64,000 bases of DNA from Armatimonadota bacterium (GTDB taxonomy: Bacteria; Sysuimicrobiota; Sysuimicrobiia; Sysuimicrobiales; Sysuimicrobiaceae), in contig JAVKGW010000005.1 in the NCBI GenBank assembly GCA_031460175.1, positions 1 through 64,000 on the forward strand, given 5' to 3'. Each line of letters opens with the position of its first letter. Position 1 is the stretch's first letter. The notes under the pieces are model-generated. The model was not told where the DNA came from and made no database searches. It saw only the letters and a program-made list of their open reading frames with translations. The translations under genes were made by a program, and so were the position numbers. Positions 4,843-63,233 of this stretch are shown here, one piece after another.

Positions 4843-6075
4843 ATGCGCACGCGGAGGCTCGCGGTGCTGGCCATCCTGGGAATGGTTGCGGTGACCGCGC
4901 CCCGGGCAGGGGCGGGACCCTCCCTCCGGTTCGAGCGCAACATCAAGGTGGGGATCGTGGACACCTACAGCGGGCCGCCCGCGGTCTTCGGGAACGACGC
5001 CCTCAACGGCTTCCGGCTGGCCCTGGAGGAGATCAACCGGGAAGGGGTGCACGGTGCCCGCATCGAGTTCGTGACCCGGGACGAGAAGTTCAGCCCGGAG
5101 ATCGGGCTCAGCATGGCCCGGGAGCTGGTGTTGCAGGAGCGGGTGGACCTCCTGGTGGGCACCATCAGCAGCGCCACCGCCCTCGCCATCTCCGCCTTCG
5201 CCCGGGAGCAGCGGGTGCCCTTCCTCGTGTGGATCAGCAAGAGCGAGCAGATCACCGGGGCCAAAGGCCACCGGTACGTGTTCAGCACCTCGGAGAACAC
5301 CGCCATGGCCGGGAAGGCTCTGGCCTACGCCCTCGCCCGGCGGGGCTACACCCGGTTCTGGATCGGCGCGGAGGACTACGAGTACGGACACGCGGTCACC
5401 AACTCCTTCTGGCGGTTCATGAAGCGCGCGAAGCCCGAGGCCACCCTGCTGGGGCAGACCTGGTGGCGGACGGGGGAGCCGGACCTCGTCCCGTACCTCA
5501 CCCAGATCCTGCAGGCCAGGCCCGACGCCGCCTTCTTCGGAACGGGCGGGGCGGGCATGGCCAATGTGCTGCGCACCATGAAGGTGATCGGGTTCGCGGA
5601 ACGCGTTCCTTCCGCCATCCACACCGCCATCGACGTCACCGTGTTGCGACCCTTGGGCGCGGCGGCGCCGGAGGACGTGTGGGGCACCACGGACTATCTC
5701 TTCTACTACCCGGAGACCCCTGCGAACCGGGAGTTCGTGCGGCGGTTCCAGACCGCCTACCGGGATCCGCCAGGCTTCCCCGCCTTCCACGGGTACATCA
5801 CCGCGCATTTCATCGCGGAAGCGTATCGCCGGGCCCGGTCCCTGGACCGGGAGCGCTTCATCGAAGCCCTGGAGGGCCTGCGGATCCGTACACCCGTGGG
5901 GGAGGTGGAGATGCGGGCCTGCGACCATCAGGCGACCCTGCCCCTGTTCTTCGGGCGCACGAAGCGGGATCCCCAGTTCCCCTTCCTCGTGGCGGGGGAT
6001 CTCATGACCGTTCCGGCCCGGGAGGTCATGCCCACCTGCGAGGACATCCAGCGGGCAAGGACCCAGGGGCGGTAA
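4843..6075 (+). CDS. livK: branched-chain-type ABC substrate-binding protein
   Basis: This 410-residue periplasmic or secreted binding protein belongs to the Leu/Ile/Val receptor family. A signal peptide (basic MRTRR, hydrophobic stretch, APRAGA cleavage zone) is followed by IKVGIVDTYSGPPAVFG, the typical first strand and ligand loop. It heads an operon with two permeases and two ATPases. In purple bacteria importers of this family sit beside 4-hydroxybenzoate genes, so the ligand may be an aromatic acid rather than leucine; this is inferred from the neighbourhood only. A purine-rich ribosome site (GGAAAGGGGGAAGCAGC) precedes the ATG. Confidence 0.92.
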   Translation: MRTRRLAVLAILGMVAVTAPRAGAGPSLRFERNIKVGIVDTYSGPPAVFGNDALNGFRLALEEINREGVHGARIEFVTRDEKFSPEIGLSMARELVLQERVDLLVGTISSATALAISAFAREQRVPFLVWISKSEQITGAKGHRYVFSTSENTAMAGKALAYALARRGYTRFWIGAEDYEYGHAVTNSFWRFMKRAKPEATLLGQTWWRTGEPDLVPYLTQILQARPDAAFFGTGGAGMANVLRTMKVIGFAERVPSAIHTAIDVTVLRPLGAAAPEDVWGTTDYLFYYPETPANREFVRRFQTAYRDPPGFPAFHGYITAHFIAEAYRRARSLDRERFIEALEGLRIRTPVGEVEMRACDHQATLPLFFGRTKRDPQFPFLVAGDLMTVPAREVMPTCEDIQRARTQGR

Positions 6076-52108: not shown

Positions 52109-52897
52109 ATGCCGTTCACGGTGAAGGACTTCCAAGACCTCCTGAGGCTGCTGCAGGAGCGCCCGGAGTGGCGGGACCAGCTGCGCCGGGTGCTGCTCAC
52201 CGACGAGATCCTCCAGCTCCCCAGAGCGATGCGGGAGCTCACGGAGGAGGTGCGCCGCCTCGCGGAAGCCCAGACCAGAACCGAGGAGCGGCTGGGGCGG
52301 CTGGAGGAAGCCGTCACCCGCCTCGACCAGGCCGTCGTCCGCCTCGCGGAAGCCCAGGCCCGAACCGAGCAGCAGCTGGAGGCCTTGAGCGCGGCCCAGG
52401 TGCAAACCGAGAGACAGGTGGCAGCGCTGACGGAGACCGTCCGCGCCCTGGTGCGGGACGTGGGCGATCTCAAGGGGGAGAGCCTCGAACGGACCTACCG
52501 CGACCGCGCCCCCGCCTACTTCGGACGGATCCTCCAGAGGATCCGGGTCCTGGACGCCCAGCGGCTCGGACTGCTGCTGGACGAGGCGGTGGAGGCCGGC
52601 CGGATCACCCCGGACGAGCGCATAGACGCCCTGGAAGCCGACGTGGTGGTGGAGGGGCGGAGGGACGGGGAAGAGGTCTACCTGGTGGCAGAGGTCTCCT
52701 GGCAGATCGGAGCCGAGGACGTGGAGCGCGCAATCCGCCGGGCCTCCGTGGTCGAACGCGCGCTTCAGCGGCGCACCCTGGCGGCGGTGGCGGGCAAGGG
52801 ATTGGGCAGGGACCGCAGGACGCAACGGGCCGTCTCCGCGGTGTGGCAGGTGCTAGACGGTACGGTCAGCCCGCCCGCGGACCGTCGAGGGATCTGA
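52109..52897 (+). CDS. coiled-coil protein with putative PD-(D/E)XK-like C-terminus
   Basis: This 262-residue protein has a long coiled coil at about residues 35-140 built on repeated RLAEAQxRTEE/QQLE units, and a C-terminal domain with DALEADVVVEGRRDGEEVYLVAEVSW, which resembles DUF3782-type nuclease-like proteins. Positional D, E and V/S residues fit a degenerate D-ExK core; activity is uncertain. It opens the accessory island after the IS remnant and is followed by a Uma2 gene. Confidence 0.7.
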   Translation: MPFTVKDFQDLLRLLQERPEWRDQLRRVLLTDEILQLPRAMRELTEEVRRLAEAQTRTEERLGRLEEAVTRLDQAVVRLAEAQARTEQQLEALSAAQVQTERQVAALTETVRALVRDVGDLKGESLERTYRDRAPAYFGRILQRIRVLDAQRLGLLLDEAVEAGRITPDERIDALEADVVVEGRRDGEEVYLVAEVSWQIGAEDVERAIRRASVVERALQRRTLAAVAGKGLGRDRRTQRAVSAVWQVLDGTVSPPADRRGI

Positions 52898-54498: not shown

Positions 54499-55881
54499 GT
54501 GAGCCGGTTCTGGATGCGCAGGCCGATTTTTCTCGCGACCGCGGCGTTGCTCCTCGTGGCCGCGTGCGGCATCACGCAGGGGCAGGGGCCCGTCCCCCAG
54601 CCACCCGGCCTCCCCTCCCAACCCCAGGTCACCCTCCAGCAGGCGGGGCCCCACGCGCCGGACAGGGTTCTGGTGCGGTTCCGGCCCGGCACCCCGCCCG
54701 ACAAGATGGAAGCCCTCCACCGCCGGGTGGGGGGGCGCGTGGTGGACACCATCCCCCAGATCGGGGTCCTGGTGGTCCAGGTGCCGGCCAACACCGTGGC
54801 GGGCGCCATCGGGGTCTACACCTCCGACCCCGCCACGGAGTTCGCGGAGCCGGACGGGGTGGTCCAGGCCCTGGTGGTTCCCAACGACCCCATGTTCGGC
54901 CAGCAGTGGGGCCCGCAGAAGGTGGAAGCGCCAGCGGCCTGGGACCTCACCACGGGAAGTTCCTCGGTACGCATCGCGATCCTCGACACCGGGATCAGTT
55001 CCGGCCACCCGGACCTCGCCGGAAAGGTGGTGACGGCACGGAACTTCACCACCTCCCCCACGGTGGAGGACGTGGACGGCCACGGGACCCACGTGGCCGG
55101 GATCGCCGCCGCGGTCACCAACAACGCCACGGGAGTCGCGGGGATGGACTGGAACGCGCGGCTCATGAACGGCAAGGTCCTGGGCGACGACGGGAGCGGC
55201 TACTACTCCTGGGTGGCGAGCGGCATCGTGTGGGCCGCGGACAACGGGGCGAAGGTGATCAACATGAGCCTCGGGGGGCCCTTCCCCAGCTCGACCCTGC
55301 AGAGCGCGGTGGACTACGCCTGGAACCGGGGCGTCGTGCTGGCCTGCGCCGCGGGCAACAGCGGGACCACGAGCCCCAGTTACCCCGCGTACTACACCAA
55401 CTGCATCGCGGTCGGAGCCACCACCCAACTCGACACCCAGGCCAGCTTCAGCAACTACGGGAGCTGGGTGGACGTGGGAGCTCCGGGGGTCGGGGTCCTC
55501 AGCACGGTGCCGGGAGGGTACACCTCCTACAGCGGGACTTCCATGGCGACCCCGCACGTGGCGGGGCTCGCGGCCCTGGTGTGGACCCGGCAGGGTTCGA
55601 ATTCCGCGGTCCGGAACTGCATCGAGTCCTTCACCGACCCGGTAACGGGGAACCCCTTCGCGCGGGGGAGGATCAACGCGCGAAAGGCGGTGGAGTGCAC
55701 GGGGGCGAGCCCCACCCCGTCCCCATCGCCCACACCGACACCCTCCCCCACGCCGACCCCTCCCCCAACTCCCAAGCCCCGGTGGACGCCCTCACCCACC
55801 CCGAGCCCCACGCCTACGCCTTCTCCGACTCCCACCCCGACGCCGACCCCTTCTCCGACCCCGACGCCGAGGTGGAAGTGA
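54499..55881 (+). CDS. subtilisin-like (S8) lipoprotein protease
   Basis: This 460-residue protein has a lipobox LVAAC (Cys23), an inhibitor-like propeptide at about 53-125 (DRVLVRFRPGTPPDKMEALH), a Fn-like Q-rich lead and an S8 domain with catalytic D163 (AILDTGIS), H195 (GHGTHVAG), N287 (AAGNSG) and S348 (SGTSMATPHVAG). A C-terminal tail of about 60 residues is PT/SP repeats, a flexible wall-spanning linker. Thermitase-like. GTG start. It lies downstream of repeat copy 2. Confidence 0.92.
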   Translation: MSRFWMRRPIFLATAALLLVAACGITQGQGPVPQPPGLPSQPQVTLQQAGPHAPDRVLVRFRPGTPPDKMEALHRRVGGRVVDTIPQIGVLVVQVPANTVAGAIGVYTSDPATEFAEPDGVVQALVVPNDPMFGQQWGPQKVEAPAAWDLTTGSSSVRIAILDTGISSGHPDLAGKVVTARNFTTSPTVEDVDGHGTHVAGIAAAVTNNATGVAGMDWNARLMNGKVLGDDGSGYYSWVASGIVWAADNGAKVINMSLGGPFPSSTLQSAVDYAWNRGVVLACAAGNSGTTSPSYPAYYTNCIAVGATTQLDTQASFSNYGSWVDVGAPGVGVLSTVPGGYTSYSGTSMATPHVAGLAALVWTRQGSNSAVRNCIESFTDPVTGNPFARGRINARKAVECTGASPTPSPSPTPTPSPTPTPPPTPKPRWTPSPTPSPTPTPSPTPTPTPTPSPTPTPRWK

Positions 55882-55916: not shown

Positions 55917-55945
55917 TTGTCCGGGAAGACCAGGCGGGGTAGCAT
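55917..55945 (+). promoter_or_regulatory. promoter of the coiled-coil membrane protein, probably leaderless
   Basis: TTGTCC (55917-55922), 17 bp, TAGCAT (55940-55945), then 6 bp to the GTG start. The copy at 61.8 kb has TTGCCC, 18 bp, TAGGAT and the same 6 bp to GTG, so the arrangement is conserved between the paralogues. Confidence 0.65.
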
Positions 55946-55951
55946 ATGCCC

Positions 55952-56224
55952 GTGGCGTGGGAGCAGGTGGCCACCATCGTGGTGACCGTGGTCCTGGCAG
56001 TACTCGCCGGGATCCTGTACAACAACCGCCGCTTCGACGACGTGAACCGCCGGTTCGACGATGTCAACGCGCGCTTCGACGACGTCCACCGCCGGATCGA
56101 CGACCTCCGGTCCGACATGAACGCCCGCTTCGCCCAGGTGGACGCCCGGCTCGCGGAGCTGCGCGAAGACCTGCGGGAAATCCGGACCCTGCTCCAGGAC
56201 GCCCTGCGGACCAGGACCCCGTAG
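55952..56224 (+). CDS. one-helix membrane protein with heptad coiled coil, copy A
   Basis: This 90-residue protein has an N-terminal membrane helix (ATIVVTVVLAVLAGILY) followed by heptads NRRFDDV-NRRFDDV-NARFDDV-HRRIDDL and a charged amphipathic coil to LLQDALRTRTP. It is paralogous to 61432-61788. I use the shared GTG start at 55952; an ATG 6 bp upstream is not conserved in the paralogue. Function unknown; it may be a membrane-tethered oligomer. Confidence 0.75.
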   Translation: MAWEQVATIVVTVVLAVLAGILYNNRRFDDVNRRFDDVNARFDDVHRRIDDLRSDMNARFAQVDARLAELREDLREIRTLLQDALRTRTP

Positions 56225-56260
56225 ACCCCACCGTGTCCACCACCCAGGTGCAAGTGAGGC

Positions 56261-56288
56261 AGGGGTCTGACACCAGGGGTCTGACACC
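56261..56288. repeat. tandem 14-bp repeat AGGGGTCTGACACC
   Basis: Two exact adjacent copies (56261-56274, 56275-56288) are variants of the palindromic repeat in this island, downstream of the coiled-coil gene. Confidence 0.85.
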
Positions 56289-56317
56289 GTGGCGATGGCC
56301 CCGGTGATCCTCCGGGT

Positions 56318-56357
56318 GGTGTACACTCCGTGATAGGGGTGTACACTCCGTCATAGG
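56318..56357. promoter_or_regulatory. tandem GTGTACAC palindromes, 20-bp period
   Basis: GGTGTACACTCCGTGATAGG and GGTGTACACTCCGTCATAGG are consecutive 20-bp units that differ at one base. Each contains the perfect octamer GTGTACAC. They end 10 bp before the ATG at 56368, in operator position, with two helical turns between centres. Confidence 0.6.
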
Positions 56358-56367
56358 AGCGTGAGGA

Positions 56368-56979
56368 ATGCGGTTGCGCAGGGCTTTTGTGTTTCGCCTT
56401 CTGGTCGGTGCGGCGGCGCTCGGCCTCATCGCGGGGCAGGTCCCGGATGCGTCCGCCGCGCCGTGGTACAGCCAGCAGTTCTCCGCCACCTTGGTCCAGA
56501 CCCCACCCCCCGGGCGGGGCGGCAGCAAACGCACGGGAAGGCTGTTCGTGGGAGATGCGGCTCTCCGGTTCGAGCTGGCTGCTCCGGGACCTGTGTACAT
56601 CTACGACGTCCGCCGGGACAGGAGGTGGATCCTCTTCCCCGACCAGAGGCGGTACGCGGAGACGAAGGGGGCCGGACCCCTGGCGGACTTCCTCCCCAGG
56701 CCCGGCGGAAACCCGTGCGCGGGGATTCCCGCCACAGGAGTCACGTGCCGGAGGACGGGCACCGAGCGCGTCAACGGACGCGTGGCGGACCGCTGGGAGG
56801 TGCAGCTGCAGGCGGGAGGCAGGAAGTTCGTCGGCTTCAGGTGGGTGGACCGTCAGCTGGGAGTCCCGGTCCGGCTCGTGACGTATGAAGGAGCCAGGGT
56901 CGACCTGCTGGACATCCGGACCGGCCCCCAGCCCCCGAGCCTGTTCCGGCTGCCGGCGGACTACCGGCCTGCCCGGTGA
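56368..56979 (+). CDS. secreted protein, paralogue of the 53.8-kb lipoprotein
   Basis: This 203-residue protein has a signal peptide (LLVGAAALGLIAGQ to ASAAP) and a mature domain with YSQQFSATLVQTPPPGRG, GRLFVGDAALRFEL, YIYDVRRDRRWILFPDQRRY and the shared NPCAG...TCRRTGTERVNGRVADRWEV part. The N-terminal half, absent from the lipoprotein, resembles LolA/DUF4412-type domains that bind lipids. Start at ATG 56368 with AGGAGCGTGAGGA upstream. Confidence 0.75.
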   Translation: MRLRRAFVFRLLVGAAALGLIAGQVPDASAAPWYSQQFSATLVQTPPPGRGGSKRTGRLFVGDAALRFELAAPGPVYIYDVRRDRRWILFPDQRRYAETKGAGPLADFLPRPGGNPCAGIPATGVTCRRTGTERVNGRVADRWEVQLQAGGRKFVGFRWVDRQLGVPVRLVTYEGARVDLLDIRTGPQPPSLFRLPADYRPAR

Positions 56980-56998
56980 GGCCGTTCAGGGCCTGACC
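56980..56998. repeat. degenerate copy of the GGCCGTTCAGGGG repeat
   Basis: GGCCGTTCAGGGCCTGACC shares the extended lead GGCCGTTC with copies 1 and 2 and covers the stop codon of the minus-strand BsuPI gene. Confidence 0.55.
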
Positions 56999-57465
56999 AC
57001 CAGGCGGGCGGGCCGGGTCCTCCGGAACTCCGGGGGCTCGAGGTACAGGACGCCGTAGACGAAGTACGTCCCGGGAGGCACCGGGTTCCCTTCGAGGTCC
57101 TTCTGGTCCCACTCGCCGGCGAACTCCACCGCTTCCCCCGGCGCCAGTGTCCTGAGGTCCAGGACGTCCCGGACCGCCCGTCCGTGCCTCCACGTCCAGA
57201 CGGTCCTGCCCCTGCGGACCACCACGAAGTCGTGGGGAGGACGGCCCCCGAGGTGCAGGACGCAGGGACGCACAAACCGGTTGCGGGCCACGAGGGCGAG
57301 CCGGACGGTCTGCCCGGCGCTGGCCGAACTCGGTGCCCTCAGGGACAGCGCCGGGTCGCACCTCCCGGCGGCCTGCCCCGCACCCGGAAAGGCGACCACT
57401 CCGGCCAGGAGGCCTGTAACGAGGAGGGGGGCTGCGGCCGCTGGCCGCAGCCCCCCCGACACCAC
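56986..57465 (-). CDS. BsuPI-type proteinase inhibitor domain protein
   Basis: The mature domain (LVARNRFVRPCVLHLGGR, DFVVVRRGRTVWTWRHGRAV, LAPGEAVEFAGEWDQKDL, GNPVPPGTYFVYGVLY) matches the intracellular proteinase inhibitor BsuPI family, here behind a signal peptide (LLVTGLLAGVVAFPGAGQAAG), so it is exported. It is encoded 4 bp after the S1 protease gene and beside two S8 proteases, so it may protect the cell or control them. I choose the GTG at 57465; a GTG at 57504 would overlap the protease gene by 35 bp. Confidence 0.78.
   Translation of the reverse strand: MVSGGLRPAAAAPLLVTGLLAGVVAFPGAGQAAGRCDPALSLRAPSSASAGQTVRLALVARNRFVRPCVLHLGGRPPHDFVVVRRGRTVWTWRHGRAVRDVLDLRTLAPGEAVEFAGEWDQKDLEGNPVPPGTYFVYGVLYLEPPEFRRTRPARLVVRP
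57425..57456. terminator. GC-rich hairpin after the S1 protease gene
   Basis: GGGGGGCTGCGGCC and GGCCGCAGCCCCCC are 14-bp arms around GCT. The hairpin lies 14 bp after the protease stop and inside the signal-peptide codons of the BsuPI gene. No T tract follows, so it may slow transcription or translation rather than terminate it. Confidence 0.45.
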
Positions 57466-57469
57466 CCCG

Positions 57470-58654
57470 CTACGGGGTGAGGAGGAACGTCCCAACCGGC
57501 ACACCGAGGTCCTGCTCGAACCCGTAGATGGGCGAGTGGATACCCAGGGTGTGGGCAGAGCTTGCTTCTAGACTCGCGGAGTGGATCGCGACCAGCCTCA
57601 CGGACGTCTGGCTGGGCGAGACGATGTACAGGCCGCTCCCGCTGTCGCCCGGTGCCGTGCCGAGGTTGCCCGGGAGCTTGTACGTCAGGATCTGCGCGAT
57701 CTGGAACTGGTTCGGCGCAAACTGCCAGTCGAAGTTGTTCGACATCACCACGCCGACCAACGTGGTCCCCGTCGTGCGTCCCACCTTCCACAGGTAGGAG
57801 CCCGGCGGGATGTCCGCGGGGCTCATCGCGCGGCCGACCACCGTGGAGTTACCGACGATAGGGGCCAGCGGGTTGTTCAGGACGCCGCCCTGGTAGGCGA
57901 TCCTGCCCCGGGAGAAGTTGGTGAATCCCGCGTCCCACGTGGCGAAAAGGACATCACTGCGCCGGCACTGCGAACCCGCTGGGTAGCCAGCCGGGCAGGC
58001 AGCGAGTAGGGGGTCGTTCGCCTCCGCGGCGACCAGGTTCGCGGCGTCGGGCTGCCCGTACTGTGTTCCGTCAGGTCCGAACGTGGTGGTGGAGCAGTGG
58101 GAGGCGGTCAGGAACCCCTCCTGCCCGGTGTCCAGGCGCCGGGCCAGGGCGCCGATGGTGCAGTTGCTGGTGGGGTTCGGCAGGGGGAAAGCGATCTGCA
58201 CGCCCGCCACCACCGGCCGGACCACGCCCTGCAGGTTGTCCCTCCGGAACTGCCCCACGTACACGACGAGACCCGAAGCGGGCACTCCCTTGGAGGCCGC
58301 CAACTGCCGGACCTGCTGGGCCTTGGCTTCGTCGGGGACCACCACGACCACCCGGTTGTCACCCGTGGTCCCGATCCCGACTCCGGGGCCGAGCTGCCAG
58401 AAGTCGGGCTTCATGGCGGCCGCCCACGCGTTCGCATCCCCTGACGCCGCAGGCGGCTGGCCTCCCGGAGGCTGCGCAGATGGCGGCTGGCTACCCGGAG
58501 GCTGCGCAGACGGCGGCTGGCTACCCGGAGGCTGCGCCGCAGGCGGCTCGCCTCCCGGAGGCGGCGGGACCACCCCGGAGTACTGGGAGGTACCGCAGGC
58601 CGCCACGAGCGCAGCCACGGCCAACAACGCGGTGAACCTCAACACGTCTCGCAC
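57470..58654 (-). CDS. trypsin-like (S1) lipoprotein protease
   Basis: This 394-residue protein has a lipobox LVAAC (Cys20), a Pro-rich linker of repeated QPPGSQPPSA units, and a chymotrypsin-fold domain with catalytic His in FLTASHCS and Ser in APGDSGSGLY. The Asp is less certain (perhaps in VLFATWDAGF). Cysteine pair SNC...HC fits streptogrisin-like enzymes. GTG start at 58654 after AGGAGGTGGAAGA. It precedes the BsuPI inhibitor gene. Confidence 0.86.
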   Translation of the reverse strand: MRDVLRFTALLAVAALVAACGTSQYSGVVPPPPGGEPPAAQPPGSQPPSAQPPGSQPPSAQPPGGQPPAASGDANAWAAAMKPDFWQLGPGVGIGTTGDNRVVVVVPDEAKAQQVRQLAASKGVPASGLVVYVGQFRRDNLQGVVRPVVAGVQIAFPLPNPTSNCTIGALARRLDTGQEGFLTASHCSTTTFGPDGTQYGQPDAANLVAAEANDPLLAACPAGYPAGSQCRRSDVLFATWDAGFTNFSRGRIAYQGGVLNNPLAPIVGNSTVVGRAMSPADIPPGSYLWKVGRTTGTTLVGVVMSNNFDWQFAPNQFQIAQILTYKLPGNLGTAPGDSGSGLYIVSPSQTSVRLVAIHSASLEASSAHTLGIHSPIYGFEQDLGVPVGTFLLTP

Positions 58655-58833
58655 TCTTCCACCTCCTCTCTGTACTGCCTTGTTTCCGTACTGCGGTGTC
58701 AGCGCCCGGGCACCGGATCGCCGGTCTTCACGGTTTCCCGGCGTCCCCGAAGTGCCAGGGCTGCGTGGGAGCCTTCCGGCAATCCAGTCTCGCTTCCACC
58801 TCCCTTCACCCTCAGGCTGTGCCTTGCCCCGTG
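58655..58833. other. intergenic region upstream of the S1 protease
   Basis: About 180 bp between the foldase stop and the protease start. It holds a ribosome site for the protease (AGGAGG near 58662) and GC-rich sequence. I see no convincing promoter or RNA element. Confidence 0.5.
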
Positions 58834-59835
58834 TCACCTGCCCGGCGAGGGTGAGACCGCGGGCGTCGGGCTCTCCGCCGGGGGCCAGTACCGCTCCACC
58901 TTTGCCCTTGACCGCAGGTCGGTAACGAGCTCTGCGAGCAGCCGGTTCTGTTCGGCCGTCCGCAGGATACGCTCGATTGTCGGCCTCGCCTCCTCCAGGG
59001 GGGTGGTGCGCTCGGGCTGCCGGCTCAACACCTTGAGGACCGCGTAGCCCCCCTCGATGGTCTTCACCACCTCGCTCACCCCGCCCTGCGGTAGCCCCCA
59101 GGCGGCCCGGGTCCGTTCCGGGTCCGTGGCCCCCTGCACCAGCAGGGTCCTGCGTGGCTCGGTGCCGAACTCCTTCGCCACCTCTTCTGTGGACCTGCCC
59201 CGCAGGAGTTCCCTCCGGGCCGCCTCCGCCCTCTCCCGGGTGGGCAGCACCACCTCCTCGGCCACCACCGAAGGGGGCTGGCGGAACAGACGGTCCCGGT
59301 TCTCCCGGTAGTAGGCCTCCACCTGCTCGGCCGTCACCTTCACCTTCGCCCGCAGGTCTTCCAGGAGCTTGTTGCCCAGCACGGACCAACGGGCGAACCG
59401 GACCAGCTGCTCTCCGTACCGGCCGGCCGCAAGCCTCCTCGCGAGCTCGGTCCGCTGGGGCACCCGGCCGAGCAGCCGGTCGCGTTCGGTCCGCACCTCC
59501 TCCTCGGTGGCCCGGTACCCGCGGCGGGTGGCTTCCTTCACCAGCAGGAGCCGGTCCACGAGGGCGTCGAGGACCGCCTTCCGGAGCTCGTCGAGCTGCC
59601 TTTCGCCTGCAGGCCCCTCGTACAGGACCCCGGCGGCGGCCTGCCTCGCGAGGACCTCGAACTCCAGGTCTTCCCACCTGACCTCCTCCCCGTCCACCCG
59701 GGCCACCACCCGGACGGGCGGGGTGGCCTCCGCCTGAGGGGCAGGACAGTGAGGCCGGAACTTCCAGGCCCCAACCGCCACCCCGGCCGCCACCACCCAC
59801 CCTAGGGCAGTCACACTGAGCAGGGCCCGGTCCAT
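58834..59835 (-). CDS. SurA/PpiC-type peptidyl-prolyl isomerase
   Basis: This 333-residue protein has an N-terminal membrane anchor (LLSVTALGWVVAAGVAVGAW), a SurA-N helical chaperone part and a parvulin-type domain (PPSVVAEEVVLPTRERAEAA, EFGTEPRRTL, LPQGGVSEVVKTIEGGYAVLKV). It probably folds exported proteins of this island. A short P/S tail ends the protein. It is encoded in the same direction as the S1 protease. Confidence 0.85.
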   Translation of the reverse strand: MDRALLSVTALGWVVAAGVAVGAWKFRPHCPAPQAEATPPVRVVARVDGEEVRWEDLEFEVLARQAAAGVLYEGPAGERQLDELRKAVLDALVDRLLLVKEATRRGYRATEEEVRTERDRLLGRVPQRTELARRLAAGRYGEQLVRFARWSVLGNKLLEDLRAKVKVTAEQVEAYYRENRDRLFRQPPSVVAEEVVLPTRERAEAARRELLRGRSTEEVAKEFGTEPRRTLLVQGATDPERTRAAWGLPQGGVSEVVKTIEGGYAVLKVLSRQPERTTPLEEARPTIERILRTAEQNRLLAELVTDLRSRAKVERYWPPAESPTPAVSPSPGR

Positions 59836-59961
59836 GCCCCTAGACCACCGATCCGCACTCGCAAGTTCCGAAATTTCATCGACACGCTCCTAAAGATCTC
59901 CATAGGGAAGGTCCGGGCAGACCGGCCGGTCCGCCCGGACCACCCCGTCACAGCCGCAGGA

Positions 59962-61107
59962 CTAGTGCCAGAACGTCACCTGCAGCGTGAAGCCGCCCAC
60001 CTGCAGCATGTCGTCCCCACCGTCGCCGTCCGTGTTCTCCTGACCAGCGGGGTTCGTCACTCCCCACTCGAACCGCAGGCCCAGGTACGGGGTCTGACCG
60101 GGGACCGTCACGGGCGGAGCGCCCACAGCGGTCTGCACCATCCCCGTCACGTCCACGGACGCGGGAGCAAGGAAGTTGTTGCTGTTGAACACCACAAGCC
60201 ACTGGCCCACAGGACCCATCGCGTAGTCCCCCTGGTCCAGCGCTCCGTTGTTCAGGTAGTCCACCCGCACCACGCCAAGCGGCCCACCCATCACAGCGTT
60301 GAAGGGATCCGTAACCTGCCATGCCCGGGTGAGCAGCGACACCGTCAGCGTCGCGTTCTGCACCGCCGCCACCGGAGCCAGCATCTGACCCGGAATCGCA
60401 AACGCCACAAAGCCCCGGATCCGGGCAGGCGGGTTGGCCCCACCGAGGACGGGCGCAGTGCACGGCGTACCCGCTAGCGCGCCACCCTCGCAGTCCCCGG
60501 TCCACACGCCGCCGGCTGCTGTACCACCGCTGAACACCGCCACCCCGGCGTTGCCCGGGGCGGACGCCCAGCCGTTCACACCCGGAATCAGAGCCAGTGT
60601 CGCGTTCGTCAACTGCCCCGTCCGCGTCGTGAAGGTGAACATGAAGTTGCTCCCCAGACTCCGACCATCCTGGCTAGATACCTGCGCCGGAATCGTCACC
60701 GTGTACGTGGTCGTCCCACGCAGCACCAAACCCGTCCAGAACGCAAAGTTCCCAATCACCGTGCAGCCCGTGGGACCCGCAACCGGCGCCGGAGCAATCA
60801 CAATCCCAGCCACGCACGGGTTCCCTCCACTCCCAGGCTGATTGTTCACCGGCGCGTTGAACTCCACCACAATCCCCGTCACCGGACCTACCCCAGGAAC
60901 CACCCGGGTCCCACCAGCCAACGGCACCTCCGTCGTATTGTTCGCAGGCGTCGTGCTCTGGACCGCGAAGGCGGGCTGGACCGGGGCCGCCGGTGGTTGC
61001 TGGGGCGGCTGCTGAGGCGGGGCCGTGGGCGAAGTACCGCAGGCCGCGGCCACGAGGATCGCGACCACCGCCAGGGCCGCGCCCCTCAACGCACGAAATC
61101 GCACCAT
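59962..61107 (-). CDS. lipoprotein with Ig-like and DNRLRE-like domains
   Basis: This 381-residue protein has a lipobox (VAAAC, Cys23) and a PQQPPQQPP linker. An Ig-like (Big_5) part (TTPANNTTEVPLAGGTRV to NFMFTFTTRTGQ) is followed by a beta-rich domain with ATLTVSLLTRAWQVTDPFN and LGLRFEWGVTN, like the DNRLRE-type cell-wall modules; the C-terminus shares this style with 63293-63991. ATG start after AAAGGAGGGAATGCG. Confidence 0.7.
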   Translation of the reverse strand: MVRFRALRGAALAVVAILVAAACGTSPTAPPQQPPQQPPAAPVQPAFAVQSTTPANNTTEVPLAGGTRVVPGVGPVTGIVVEFNAPVNNQPGSGGNPCVAGIVIAPAPVAGPTGCTVIGNFAFWTGLVLRGTTTYTVTIPAQVSSQDGRSLGSNFMFTFTTRTGQLTNATLALIPGVNGWASAPGNAGVAVFSGGTAAGGVWTGDCEGGALAGTPCTAPVLGGANPPARIRGFVAFAIPGQMLAPVAAVQNATLTVSLLTRAWQVTDPFNAVMGGPLGVVRVDYLNNGALDQGDYAMGPVGQWLVVFNSNNFLAPASVDVTGMVQTAVGAPPVTVPGQTPYLGLRFEWGVTNPAGQENTDGDGGDDMLQVGGFTLQVTFWH

Positions 61108-61431
61108 CGCATTCCCTCCTTTCGAACTGGGTTTTCACCCGCGGGTAGCCCCGCAGGCTGCTTCATAGACCACACCCCCACTCGGGAGTCCTCCTCGTTT
61201 CCTCCCGGGCGGGCGCTCCACCCCGCCGCCCGTTCTCCCTTGTATCCCCCCTTTCCCGGGCAGGGTCTTGCGGGGTACTCAGATTTCCGTCCTTTCTGTC
61301 GGTCCCCGGGGCCCGAAGGTTCAATCCCCCACCCCAGGAACCGATGCTAATTTTTGCACGATTCGTAAGGGCTCCGCAAGACCCGGGAACGCCCGGGCGG
61401 AGGGTGGAGCACGTTCTGTGTCGTGAGGGGG
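61108..61431. other. 324-bp intergenic region
   Basis: It contains the ribosome site and promoter region for the minus-strand lipoprotein, and a hairpin at 61372-61402 (CTCCGC...GCGGAG enclosing CCCGGG-AACG-CCCGGG) downstream of the coiled-coil gene at 61432. I found no ORF with coding character and no riboswitch I could recognise. Confidence 0.6.
61372..61402 (-). terminator. possible hairpin terminator after the coiled-coil gene
   Basis: CTCCGC and GCGGAG enclose a CCCGGG-AACG-CCCGGG hairpin, 30 bp past the stop of the minus-strand gene at 61432. The run following it is not T-rich, so termination efficiency is uncertain. Confidence 0.4.
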
Positions 61432-61788
61432 CTAGGAGGTGCGGGTGCGGAGGGCGTCCTGGAGGAGGCCGCGGAGCTCCCGGAGGTCTTCGCGAACCTC
61501 CCCAAGCCGCGCCTCCACCTGGGTGATCCGGGACTCCACCTGGGTGAGCCGCGCCTCCACCTGGGCGATCCGGGACTCCATCTGGCCGAACCGTGTGTCC
61601 ACGTGGGCCAGGCGGGCGTTCAGGTCGGCCCGCAGGTCGTCGAGGCGGCGGTGGACATCGTCGAACCGGCGATTGACGTCATCGAACCGGCGGTTGACGT
61701 CGTCGAACCGGCGGTTGTTGTACACGATCCCCGCGAGCACCGCGAGGACCACGGTGATCACGATGGTCGTCACCTGCTCCCACGCCAC
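61432..61788 (-). CDS. one-helix membrane protein with heptad coiled coil, copy B
   Basis: This 118-residue paralogue of copy A has the same membrane helix (VTTIVITVVLAVLAGIVY), heptads NRRFDDV repeated three times, and a longer series RIAQVEA-RLTQVES-RITQVEA-RLGEVRE. The length difference to copy A (28 residues) is exactly four heptads. GTG start at 61788 follows TAGGAT by 6 bp with TTGCCC upstream, so it is probably leaderless. Opposite in direction to copy A. Confidence 0.78.
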   Translation of the reverse strand: MAWEQVTTIVITVVLAVLAGIVYNNRRFDDVNRRFDDVNRRFDDVHRRLDDLRADLNARLAHVDTRFGQMESRIAQVEARLTQVESRITQVEARLGEVREDLRELRGLLQDALRTRTS

Positions 61789-61794
61789 GGGCCT

Positions 61795-61824
61795 ATCCTA
61801 CCCGGGGCGGGTCTTCGGGGGCAA
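61795..61824 (-). promoter_or_regulatory. probable leaderless promoter of the coiled-coil gene B
   Basis: On the minus strand TTGCCC (61819-61824), 18 bp, TAGGAT (61795-61800), then 6 bp to the GTG at 61788. Confidence 0.6.
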
Positions 61825-61871: not shown

Positions 61872-63233
61872 GTGAACCGATACTGCGTTTCCGTCCTCCT
61901 CGCCTTCACTCTCGTGGCGACCGGGTGCGGGCTCTTCGGGGGAGGTCCTCCGGGGTCTTCGGGGTCCGCCTGCCTTCCCCTCTCCTCGGTCCTCTCCCAG
62001 GCACCGGCTGGTCGGGGAGGGACGGAGGGGAAGGAGCCGGGGGGAGGGATGAGGGCGTGGCCCGCGCGGGCCGTGGACCGGATCCTGGTGCGCTTCCGAG
62101 CGGACGCCCCGACATCGGAGCGTCAGGTGCTCCTGGCTCGGGTGGGCGGGGAGGTGATCCGGGAGGTGGCGCCGCTGCGGATGCGGGTGGTGCGGGTTCC
62201 CGGAGGGCAGACGGAAGCGGCCCTGGCGGCCTACCGGACCTCGGGACTCGTGGAGTACGCGGAGCCCGATGCCCTCGCCTTCCTCCAGAGAGAGCCCAAC
62301 GATCCTCTGTACCGGAACCAGTGGAACTACCCTCAGATCCGCCTCCCCCAGGCGTGGGAGTGCACGGTGGGTTCGGGCGGGGTGGTGGTGGCGGTCATCG
62401 ACGACGGGATCACGGACCATCCGGACCTCCGGGGGGTCACGGTGCCGGGGTGGGACTTCGTGGATGGGGATACGGATCCCACCTGGCCGGGGTGCCGGAT
62501 CCACCCGGAGGAGTTCAGCCACGGGGTACACGTGACGGGAATCATCACGGCCCTCACGGACAACGGCCTGGGAGTGGCGGGGGTGAACTGGGGGCCGGGC
62601 GGGGCGAGGATCATGCCCCTGCGGGCCTTCGGGCCGTGCCCCGAGGACGGCGGCTTCATCTCGGATATCGTGGCGGCCATCGTCTACGCGGCGGACCGGG
62701 GAGCCCGGGTGATCAACATGAGCTTCGGCACCCCGTACTTCAGCGAGTTCCTGGCGGCCGCGGTCCGGTACGCGTACCAGAGGGGGGTGGTGATGGTGGC
62801 CGCGGCCGGAAACGGGTATCCCGCGCCCATCCAGTACCCCGCCCGGTTCCCGGAGGTGATCGCGGTGGGAGCGGTGAACTGCCGGAACGATGCCACCTAC
62901 TACTCCGCGGAGGGTCCGGAGCTGGAGGTGGTGGCGCCCGGAGGGAGCTCGGTAACGGAGTGCGGGTTGGACGGGGCAACGGACGGGGACCTGGTGTGGA
63001 GCACCAGCACCAGCCTCGCCCAGGGTCACGGGTACTTCCGGGCTCAGGGCACCTCCATGGCGGCCCCGCACGTCACAGGGGTGGTGGCCCTAATGATGGG
63101 GCGGGGCTTTTCGGGGGTGGAGGCGATCCGGCAGCGGCTGCGCAGTACGGCCATAGACCTCGGGCCCGCGGGCCGGGACGACCGGTTCGGGTGGGGCTTG
63201 GTGAACGCGCAGGAGGCCGTGGGGGCGAGGTAG
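61872..63233 (+). CDS. subtilisin-like (S8) lipoprotein protease
   Basis: This 453-residue protein has a lipobox VATGC (Cys19), a propeptide-like segment (VDRILVRFRADAPTSERQVL) and an S8 domain with D177 (AVIDDGI), H217 in SHGVHVTG, N314 in AAGNG and S395 in QGTSMAAPHVTG. The usual HGTHVAG block carries a V for T change. No PT tail is present, unlike the protease at 54.5 kb. GTG start after AAGGAGC. Paralogue of 54499-55881. Confidence 0.9.
   Translation: MNRYCVSVLLAFTLVATGCGLFGGGPPGSSGSACLPLSSVLSQAPAGRGGTEGKEPGGGMRAWPARAVDRILVRFRADAPTSERQVLLARVGGEVIREVAPLRMRVVRVPGGQTEAALAAYRTSGLVEYAEPDALAFLQREPNDPLYRNQWNYPQIRLPQAWECTVGSGGVVVAVIDDGITDHPDLRGVTVPGWDFVDGDTDPTWPGCRIHPEEFSHGVHVTGIITALTDNGLGVAGVNWGPGGARIMPLRAFGPCPEDGGFISDIVAAIVYAADRGARVINMSFGTPYFSEFLAAAVRYAYQRGVVMVAAAGNGYPAPIQYPARFPEVIAVGAVNCRNDATYYSAEGPELEVVAPGGSSVTECGLDGATDGDLVWSTSTSLAQGHGYFRAQGTSMAAPHVTGVVALMMGRGFSGVEAIRQRLRSTAIDLGPAGRDDRFGWGLVNAQEAVGAR

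What the first reader, a model, noticed from the sequence alone, without database searches (positions are those of the whole stretch)
55952..61788. Heptad expansion between two paralogous coiled-coil membrane proteins
From the shared GTG start, lengths are 90 and 118 residues, a difference of exactly four heptads (84 bp); 21-bp repeats underlie NRRFDDV and xIxQVEx units. The family may vary reach by heptad gain and loss.
Basis: seen in the sequence. Interest (0 to 1): 0.6.

Follow-up and report, generated by a model that had tools for sequence, protein, structure and literature searches.

The report
Membrane coiled-coil family gaining whole heptads
Two small bacterial genes encode membrane-anchored rods that differ in length by exactly four seven-residue coil turns, and every intact relative found also differs by whole turns, so the family lengthens and shortens its rod without breaking its register; what the rods do is unknown.

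Summary
Gene A (55952-56224, +) encodes 90 residues and gene B (61788-61432, -) 118 from a matching GTG start; the 28-residue difference is four heptads, and 21-bp periodicity far exceeds codon shuffles. It is not a two-gene coincidence. A third paralog lies elsewhere in the genome and seven more intact relatives are known. All ten have lengths 83, 90, 97, 104 or 118, all 6 mod 7. Variation sits in two tracts either side of a conserved 12-residue joint: NRRFDDV (1-5 copies) and xARFAQVD (1-5); one distant relative adds a heptad inside the joint. A and B differ only in the second tract. TM segment and C-terminal cap are fixed. dN/dS (0.10-0.36) shows real, constrained proteins. A TAnnnT box 12 bases before the start codon in 11 of 13 copies points to leaderless transcripts and fixes the GTG. 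The family is multi-copy, patchy (absent at all three loci in the sister species) and often decayed. No database family fits. Heptad-step evolution is supported; that it tunes "reach" is untested, and neutral length drift under a register constraint fits equally well. This is a lineage-restricted family showing a known mode of coiled-coil evolution.

The parts
55952..56224 (+). Gene A: 90-aa single-pass membrane coiled-coil protein, GTG start
   Evidence: dN/dS 0.12-0.27 against intact relatives
61432..61788 (-). Gene B: 118-aa paralog, GTG start
   Evidence: predicted single helix, residues 2-117
55917..55945 (+). Promoter of A: TTGTCC, 17-bp spacer, TAGCAT; GTG follows 6 nt later (leaderless arrangement)
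61795..61824 (-). Promoter of B: TTGCCC, 18-bp spacer, TAGGAT; GTG follows 6 nt later
55967..56023 (+). TM segment of A, residues 6-24 (VATIVVTVVLAVLAGILYN)
   Evidence: mean Kyte-Doolittle 2.34, RR directly after it
61717..61773 (-). TM segment of B, residues 6-24 (VTTIVITVVLAVLAGIVYN)
   Evidence: mean Kyte-Doolittle 2.24
56024..56086 (+). Heptad tract I of A: NRRFDDV x3
   Evidence: TRF
61654..61716 (-). Heptad tract I of B: NRRFDDV x3
   Evidence: TRF
56087..56122 (+). Conserved joint of A (HRRIDDLRSDMN), with a hendecad-like 3-4-4 core spacing
   Evidence: hydrophobic core positions 49, 52, 56, 60; conserved in A2
61618..61653 (-). Conserved joint of B (HRRLDDLRADLN)
56123..56143 (+). Heptad tract II of A: one unit, ARFAQVD
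61513..61617 (-). Heptad tract II of B: five units (ARLAHVD TRFGQME SRIAQVE ARLTQVE SRITQVE); this is the four-heptad difference
   Evidence: 42-bp array
56144..56221 (+). Conserved C-terminal cap of A
61435..61512 (-). Conserved C-terminal cap of B

Best explanation
Genes A and B belong to a small, lineage-restricted, multi-copy family of membrane-anchored coiled-coil rods. Each has one N-terminal TM helix, probably with the coil on the cytoplasmic side (inferred from RR just after the TM and no positive residue before it), then two heptad tracts joined by a conserved 12-residue joint, and a conserved helical cap. The 21-bp units are gained and lost by slippage or unequal recombination, one or two units at a time (inferred). 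Only whole-heptad changes survive because they keep the TM, joint and cap in one continuous coiled-coil register. The protein most likely works as a self-associating stalk that holds its cap a variable distance from the membrane, to pair with itself or an unknown partner. Shown by sequence: architecture, whole-heptad steps, purifying selection, conserved promoter. Inferred: topology, oligomerisation, slippage mechanism, tether function.
For: Ten intact members, lengths 83-118, all 6 mod 7; four independent class differences by chance p about 4e-4. Tract counts (I,II): A 3,1; B 3,5; C 5,1; D 2,3; E 3,1; F and G 2,1; H 1,5; I 1,2; K 2,1 plus one extra heptad in its joint. N-terminus, joint and cap conserved. 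dN/dS 0.10-0.36 wherever computable. One TM, RR on the C side. Single uninterrupted helix predicted, residues 2-88 in A (pLDDT 90) and 2-117 in B (pLDDT 92). -10 box at -12 in 11 of 13 copies, 0.05 expected, the leaderless signature described in PMC3160421.
Against: Recent local duplication is only weakly visible: units are not more alike within a copy than between copies over all sites (p about 0.3) and only marginally at third positions (p 0.04-0.06). Oligomeric state was not modelled. No conserved gene neighbour identifies a partner. Patchy presence and broken copies fit a dispensable role.
Confidence: 0.6

Rival explanations
1. Neutral length drift: any heptad number works, and purifying selection removes only register-breaking changes, so the counts carry no functional meaning.
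For: Two length classes are reached by different tract mixtures (83: 2+1 or 1+2; 104: 5+1 or 1+5); no context or partner goes with a given length.
Against: Nothing here speaks directly against it; it shares every structural step with the best explanation and differs only in whether length matters.
Confidence: 0.5
2. Adaptive reach: paralogs keep different lengths to span different distances, as with longer Lpp variants.
For: One genome keeps 90, 104 and 118; adding 2-3 heptads to E. coli Lpp widens the periplasm by 3-4 nm (PMC5736177); four heptads would add about 4 nm to a straight helix (arithmetic, 1.5 A per residue).
Against: Topology points to a cytoplasmic coil with no known target; the genes are absent from the sister species at all three loci.
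Confidence: 0.2
3. Phage-derived i-spanin (Rz-like): N-terminal TM plus extracytoplasmic coil.
For: 7 of 10 members match PHROG 7686 'Rz-like spanin', best E 1.9e-8, over TM and coil.
Against: Positive residues follow the TM, opposite to an i-spanin; no match in phages, plasmids or viral contigs; coiled coils match many unrelated models.
Confidence: 0.05
4. The gene is a mobile or selfish unit that spreads through genomes.
For: Three dispersed copies in G000, about eight places in G005 including fragments, none in G001, empty sites at the three loci; truncated copies common.
Against: No transposase, terminal repeats or target duplication seen; homology mostly stops at the promoter and stop codon; A-E synonymous divergence (pS 0.34) is not clearly below that of orthologues between the genera (0.40-0.57); old duplication plus loss explains it equally well.
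Confidence: 0.15

Closest known systems
Lpp (Braun lipoprotein), natural and length-engineered
   Same: Small membrane-attached coiled coil whose length can be changed in whole heptads without losing function (PMC5736177)
   Different: Lpp is an outer-membrane lipoprotein cross-linked to peptidoglycan; here there is a TM anchor, no lipobox seen and probably a cytoplasmic coil; no LPP family hit for A or B was listed
Chemoreceptor (MCP) cytoplasmic coiled coil, heptad length classes
   Same: Membrane-attached coiled coil occurring in discrete heptad-number classes (PMC6628036)
   Different: MCPs are antiparallel hairpins changing by paired heptads and carry signalling domains; this is a bare single helix
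Borrelia Bdr family
   Same: Multi-copy paralogs of unknown function with in-gene repeats whose number differs between strains (PMC3303823)
   Different: Bdr repeat units are different and the membrane anchor is C-terminal (recalled, not tested); plasmid or prophage borne
TM plus NARFDDV short proteins in Acidobacteria and Gammaproteobacteria MAGs (L060-L063)
   Same: Short TM followed by a RFDDVHRRIDD coil; two members differ by exactly one heptad, NARFGDV
   Different: Profile similarity covers only 30 coil columns; TM and tail differ; homology not established

Membership tests
UPF0184 (Pfam PF03670) | Score over the gathering cut-off | tested here: met
   22.7 and 25.7 bits against 21.5, in the coil region only
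UPF0184 (Pfam PF03670) | Full-length match of the same architecture | tested here: not met
   The match starts at residue 26-29, after the TM; dozens of unrelated coiled-coil models also match. Not filed here.
Rz-like i-spanin (PHROG 7686) | Profile match over TM and coil | tested here: met
   7 of 10 members, best 1.9e-8
Rz-like i-spanin (PHROG 7686) | N-in, C-out topology | tested here: not met
   No K or R before the TM, RR directly after it; a prediction, not a measurement
Rz-like i-spanin (PHROG 7686) | Phage or prophage setting with lysis genes | tested here: not met
   No homologue in phages, plasmids or viral contigs; neighbours recognised near A and B are subtilases; not every locus was annotated
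NCBIfam families | Score over a curated cut-off | tested here: not met
   None of the listed matches for A or B passes
Known fold or solved relative in PDB | Sequence or fold match | tested here: not met
   No match
Heptad-step length-variable coiled coils (a mode, not a family) | Homologue lengths differ by multiples of 7 in a heptad register | tested here: met
   10 of 10 intact members
Heptad-step length-variable coiled coils (a mode, not a family) | Protein forms a coiled-coil oligomer | not testable with these tools
   Only monomer models available: continuous helix

The most novel reading that the evidence does not exclude
A naturally length-tuned membrane ruler: one bacterium keeps several paralogous cytoplasmic stalks of graded heptad number, all from leaderless promoters, to hold a conserved cap at set distances from the inner membrane.
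Probability: 0.12. Interest if true: 0.65.

Novelty: new member of a known kind. Interest (0 to 1): 0.35.

Why it matters
It is a compact, clean example of evolution by whole coiled-coil turns: two independent 21-bp tracts, fixed ends, strict register. With five natural lengths it would make a convenient test of whether coil length matters or only register does. It also adds an uncharacterised family to an uncultured lineage related to hot-spring bacterium HR32. The mode itself is known from chemoreceptors and from engineered Lpp.

Tried and rejected
Phage or plasmid origin: no matches. Spanin, UPF0184, SMC-like and other coiled-coil family hits: judged to be coil composition artefacts. Recent horizontal transfer between genera: the high DNA identity (A-E 90%) comes mostly from few amino-acid changes; synonymous divergence is near the orthologue range. 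Concerted evolution of units: not significant over all sites (a first version of the test, dropped some units and was replaced). Phylogeny of copies: unresolved, only F and G group. Operon with a neighbour: no conserved partner; a second multi-copy coiled-coil protein lies within 400 bp of the coil gene in 3 places but not near most copies. Subtilase association (A, B and HR32): noted, but the subtilases share only 37-47% identity and lie in different orientations.

Full report
Gene A (window 55952-56224, +) and gene B (61788-61432, -) encode 90 and 118 residues from a matching GTG. The ATG six bases upstream in A is not shared by B. It lies between a -10 box and the expected transcript start, so GTG is the better start. 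The coil parts have strong 21-bp periodicity: identity at lag 21 is 0.54 and 0.66 against 0.35 for shuffled codons, p=0.0002 each, and TRF finds the arrays directly.

The pattern extends beyond the two genes. The same genome holds a third paralog, C, of 104 residues (G000 contig 1, L008:5312-5626 -). Related genomes add D (97), E (90), F and G (83, 83), H (104), I (83) and K (90, from another family of the order). Among 43 genomes of the order, only those of one family and one genome of a second family carry it. All ten intact lengths leave remainder 6 on division by 7. With five length classes the chance of that is about 4e-4.

Parsing the proteins gives a simple plan: a 24-residue N-terminus with one TM segment; tract I, (N)RRFDDV, one to five units; a joint, HRRIDDLRADMN; tract II, ARFAQVD-like, one to five units; and a fixed cap ending LLQEALRARTx. 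Counts (I,II) are A 3,1; B 3,5; C 5,1; D 2,3; E 3,1; F and G 2,1; H 1,5; I 1,2; K 2,1 plus one extra heptad inside its joint. So A to B is four units, all in tract II, while A to C is two units, all in tract I. Core hydrophobic residues follow 3-4 spacing except for one 4-4 step at the joint, which is hendecad-like. Both A and B are predicted as one unbroken helix, 2-88 and 2-117.

The genes are real. Between copies dN/dS is 0.10-0.36 where computable; one pair (H-K) has saturated synonymous sites. Eleven of 13 copies have TAnnnT starting exactly 12 bases before the start codon, against 0.05 expected from shuffles, and many have TTG 17-18 bp further upstream. This matches the leaderless-gene signature of Zheng et al. 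(PMC3160421). The distant, more AT-rich copy K has the best promoter (TTGTTC, 17 bp, TACAAT), so the arrangement is old.

Distribution is patchy. The sister species G001 (99% complete) has no copy. At the three loci the flanking sequences are present with the coil gene missing: 146 bp instead of 490 bp at B; S8 protease and next gene close together at A; a 1.7-kb difference beside tRNA-Ser at C. HR32, G004, G005 and G006 hold frameshifted, truncated or stop-bearing copies. Whether G001 lost the genes or G000 gained them cannot be decided: paralog dS (0.46-0.75) is close to the between-species value (0.57-0.71), and the tree is unresolved. The A-E similarity across genera is not clear evidence of transfer once synonymous sites are compared.

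Function is inferred. The TM has no positive residue before it and RR after it, which favours a coil in the cytoplasm. An Omp85 homologue suggests a two-membrane host, so a periplasmic coil is not impossible. I favour a self-associating membrane-anchored stalk whose register is under selection. Neutral drift in whole heptads fits at least as well, since equal lengths are reached by different tract mixtures. Evidence for recent slippage is weak: within-copy units are only marginally more alike at third positions (p 0.04-0.06) and not over all sites.

No named family applies. UPF0184 and Rz-like spanin models match, but coiled-coil composition gives dozens of such hits, and topology and setting argue against spanins. 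PDB sequence and fold searches return nothing. The finding is a new, lineage-restricted family showing a known mode of evolution. HR32 has no phylum in NCBI taxonomy; I did not establish the lineage further.

Noticed in passing
window 53576, 54408, 55886, 55900, 56262, 56276: GGGGTCTGACCCC-type palindromes (some in tandem) cluster in the gaps around gene A and at neighbouring gene ends; no other matches in the window.
   Followed up: partly
window 56318-56357: Two tandem 20-bp units containing TGTACACTCCGTCATAGG just before the ORF at 56368; could be operator sites.
   Followed up: no
window 52109-52897: Another coiled-coil protein with a conserved C-terminal part, multi-copy in these genomes and within 400 bp of coil-gene copies in G005 C37 and C14 and G009 C44; no Pfam family passes its cut-off.
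   Followed up: partly
L008:3908-3975 and 5686-5775: A tRNA-Ser(TGA) beside paralog C, with a partial tRNA-Ser-like stretch 1.7 kb away at the other edge of the segment missing in G001.
   Followed up: partly
window 54499-55881 and 61872-63233: Two subtilases with Fervidolysin-type prodomain neighbour A and B; the HR32 coil copy is also divergent from a subtilase, 47% identical to that of B.
   Followed up: partly
L065:4979-5095: In G009 the 3' end of a second coil gene lies just behind the neighbouring coiled-coil gene, a tandem-duplication remnant.
   Followed up: no
L060-L063: Short TM plus RFDDVHRRIDD proteins in Acidobacteria and Gammaproteobacteria MAGs, two of which differ by exactly one heptad.
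   Followed up: partly
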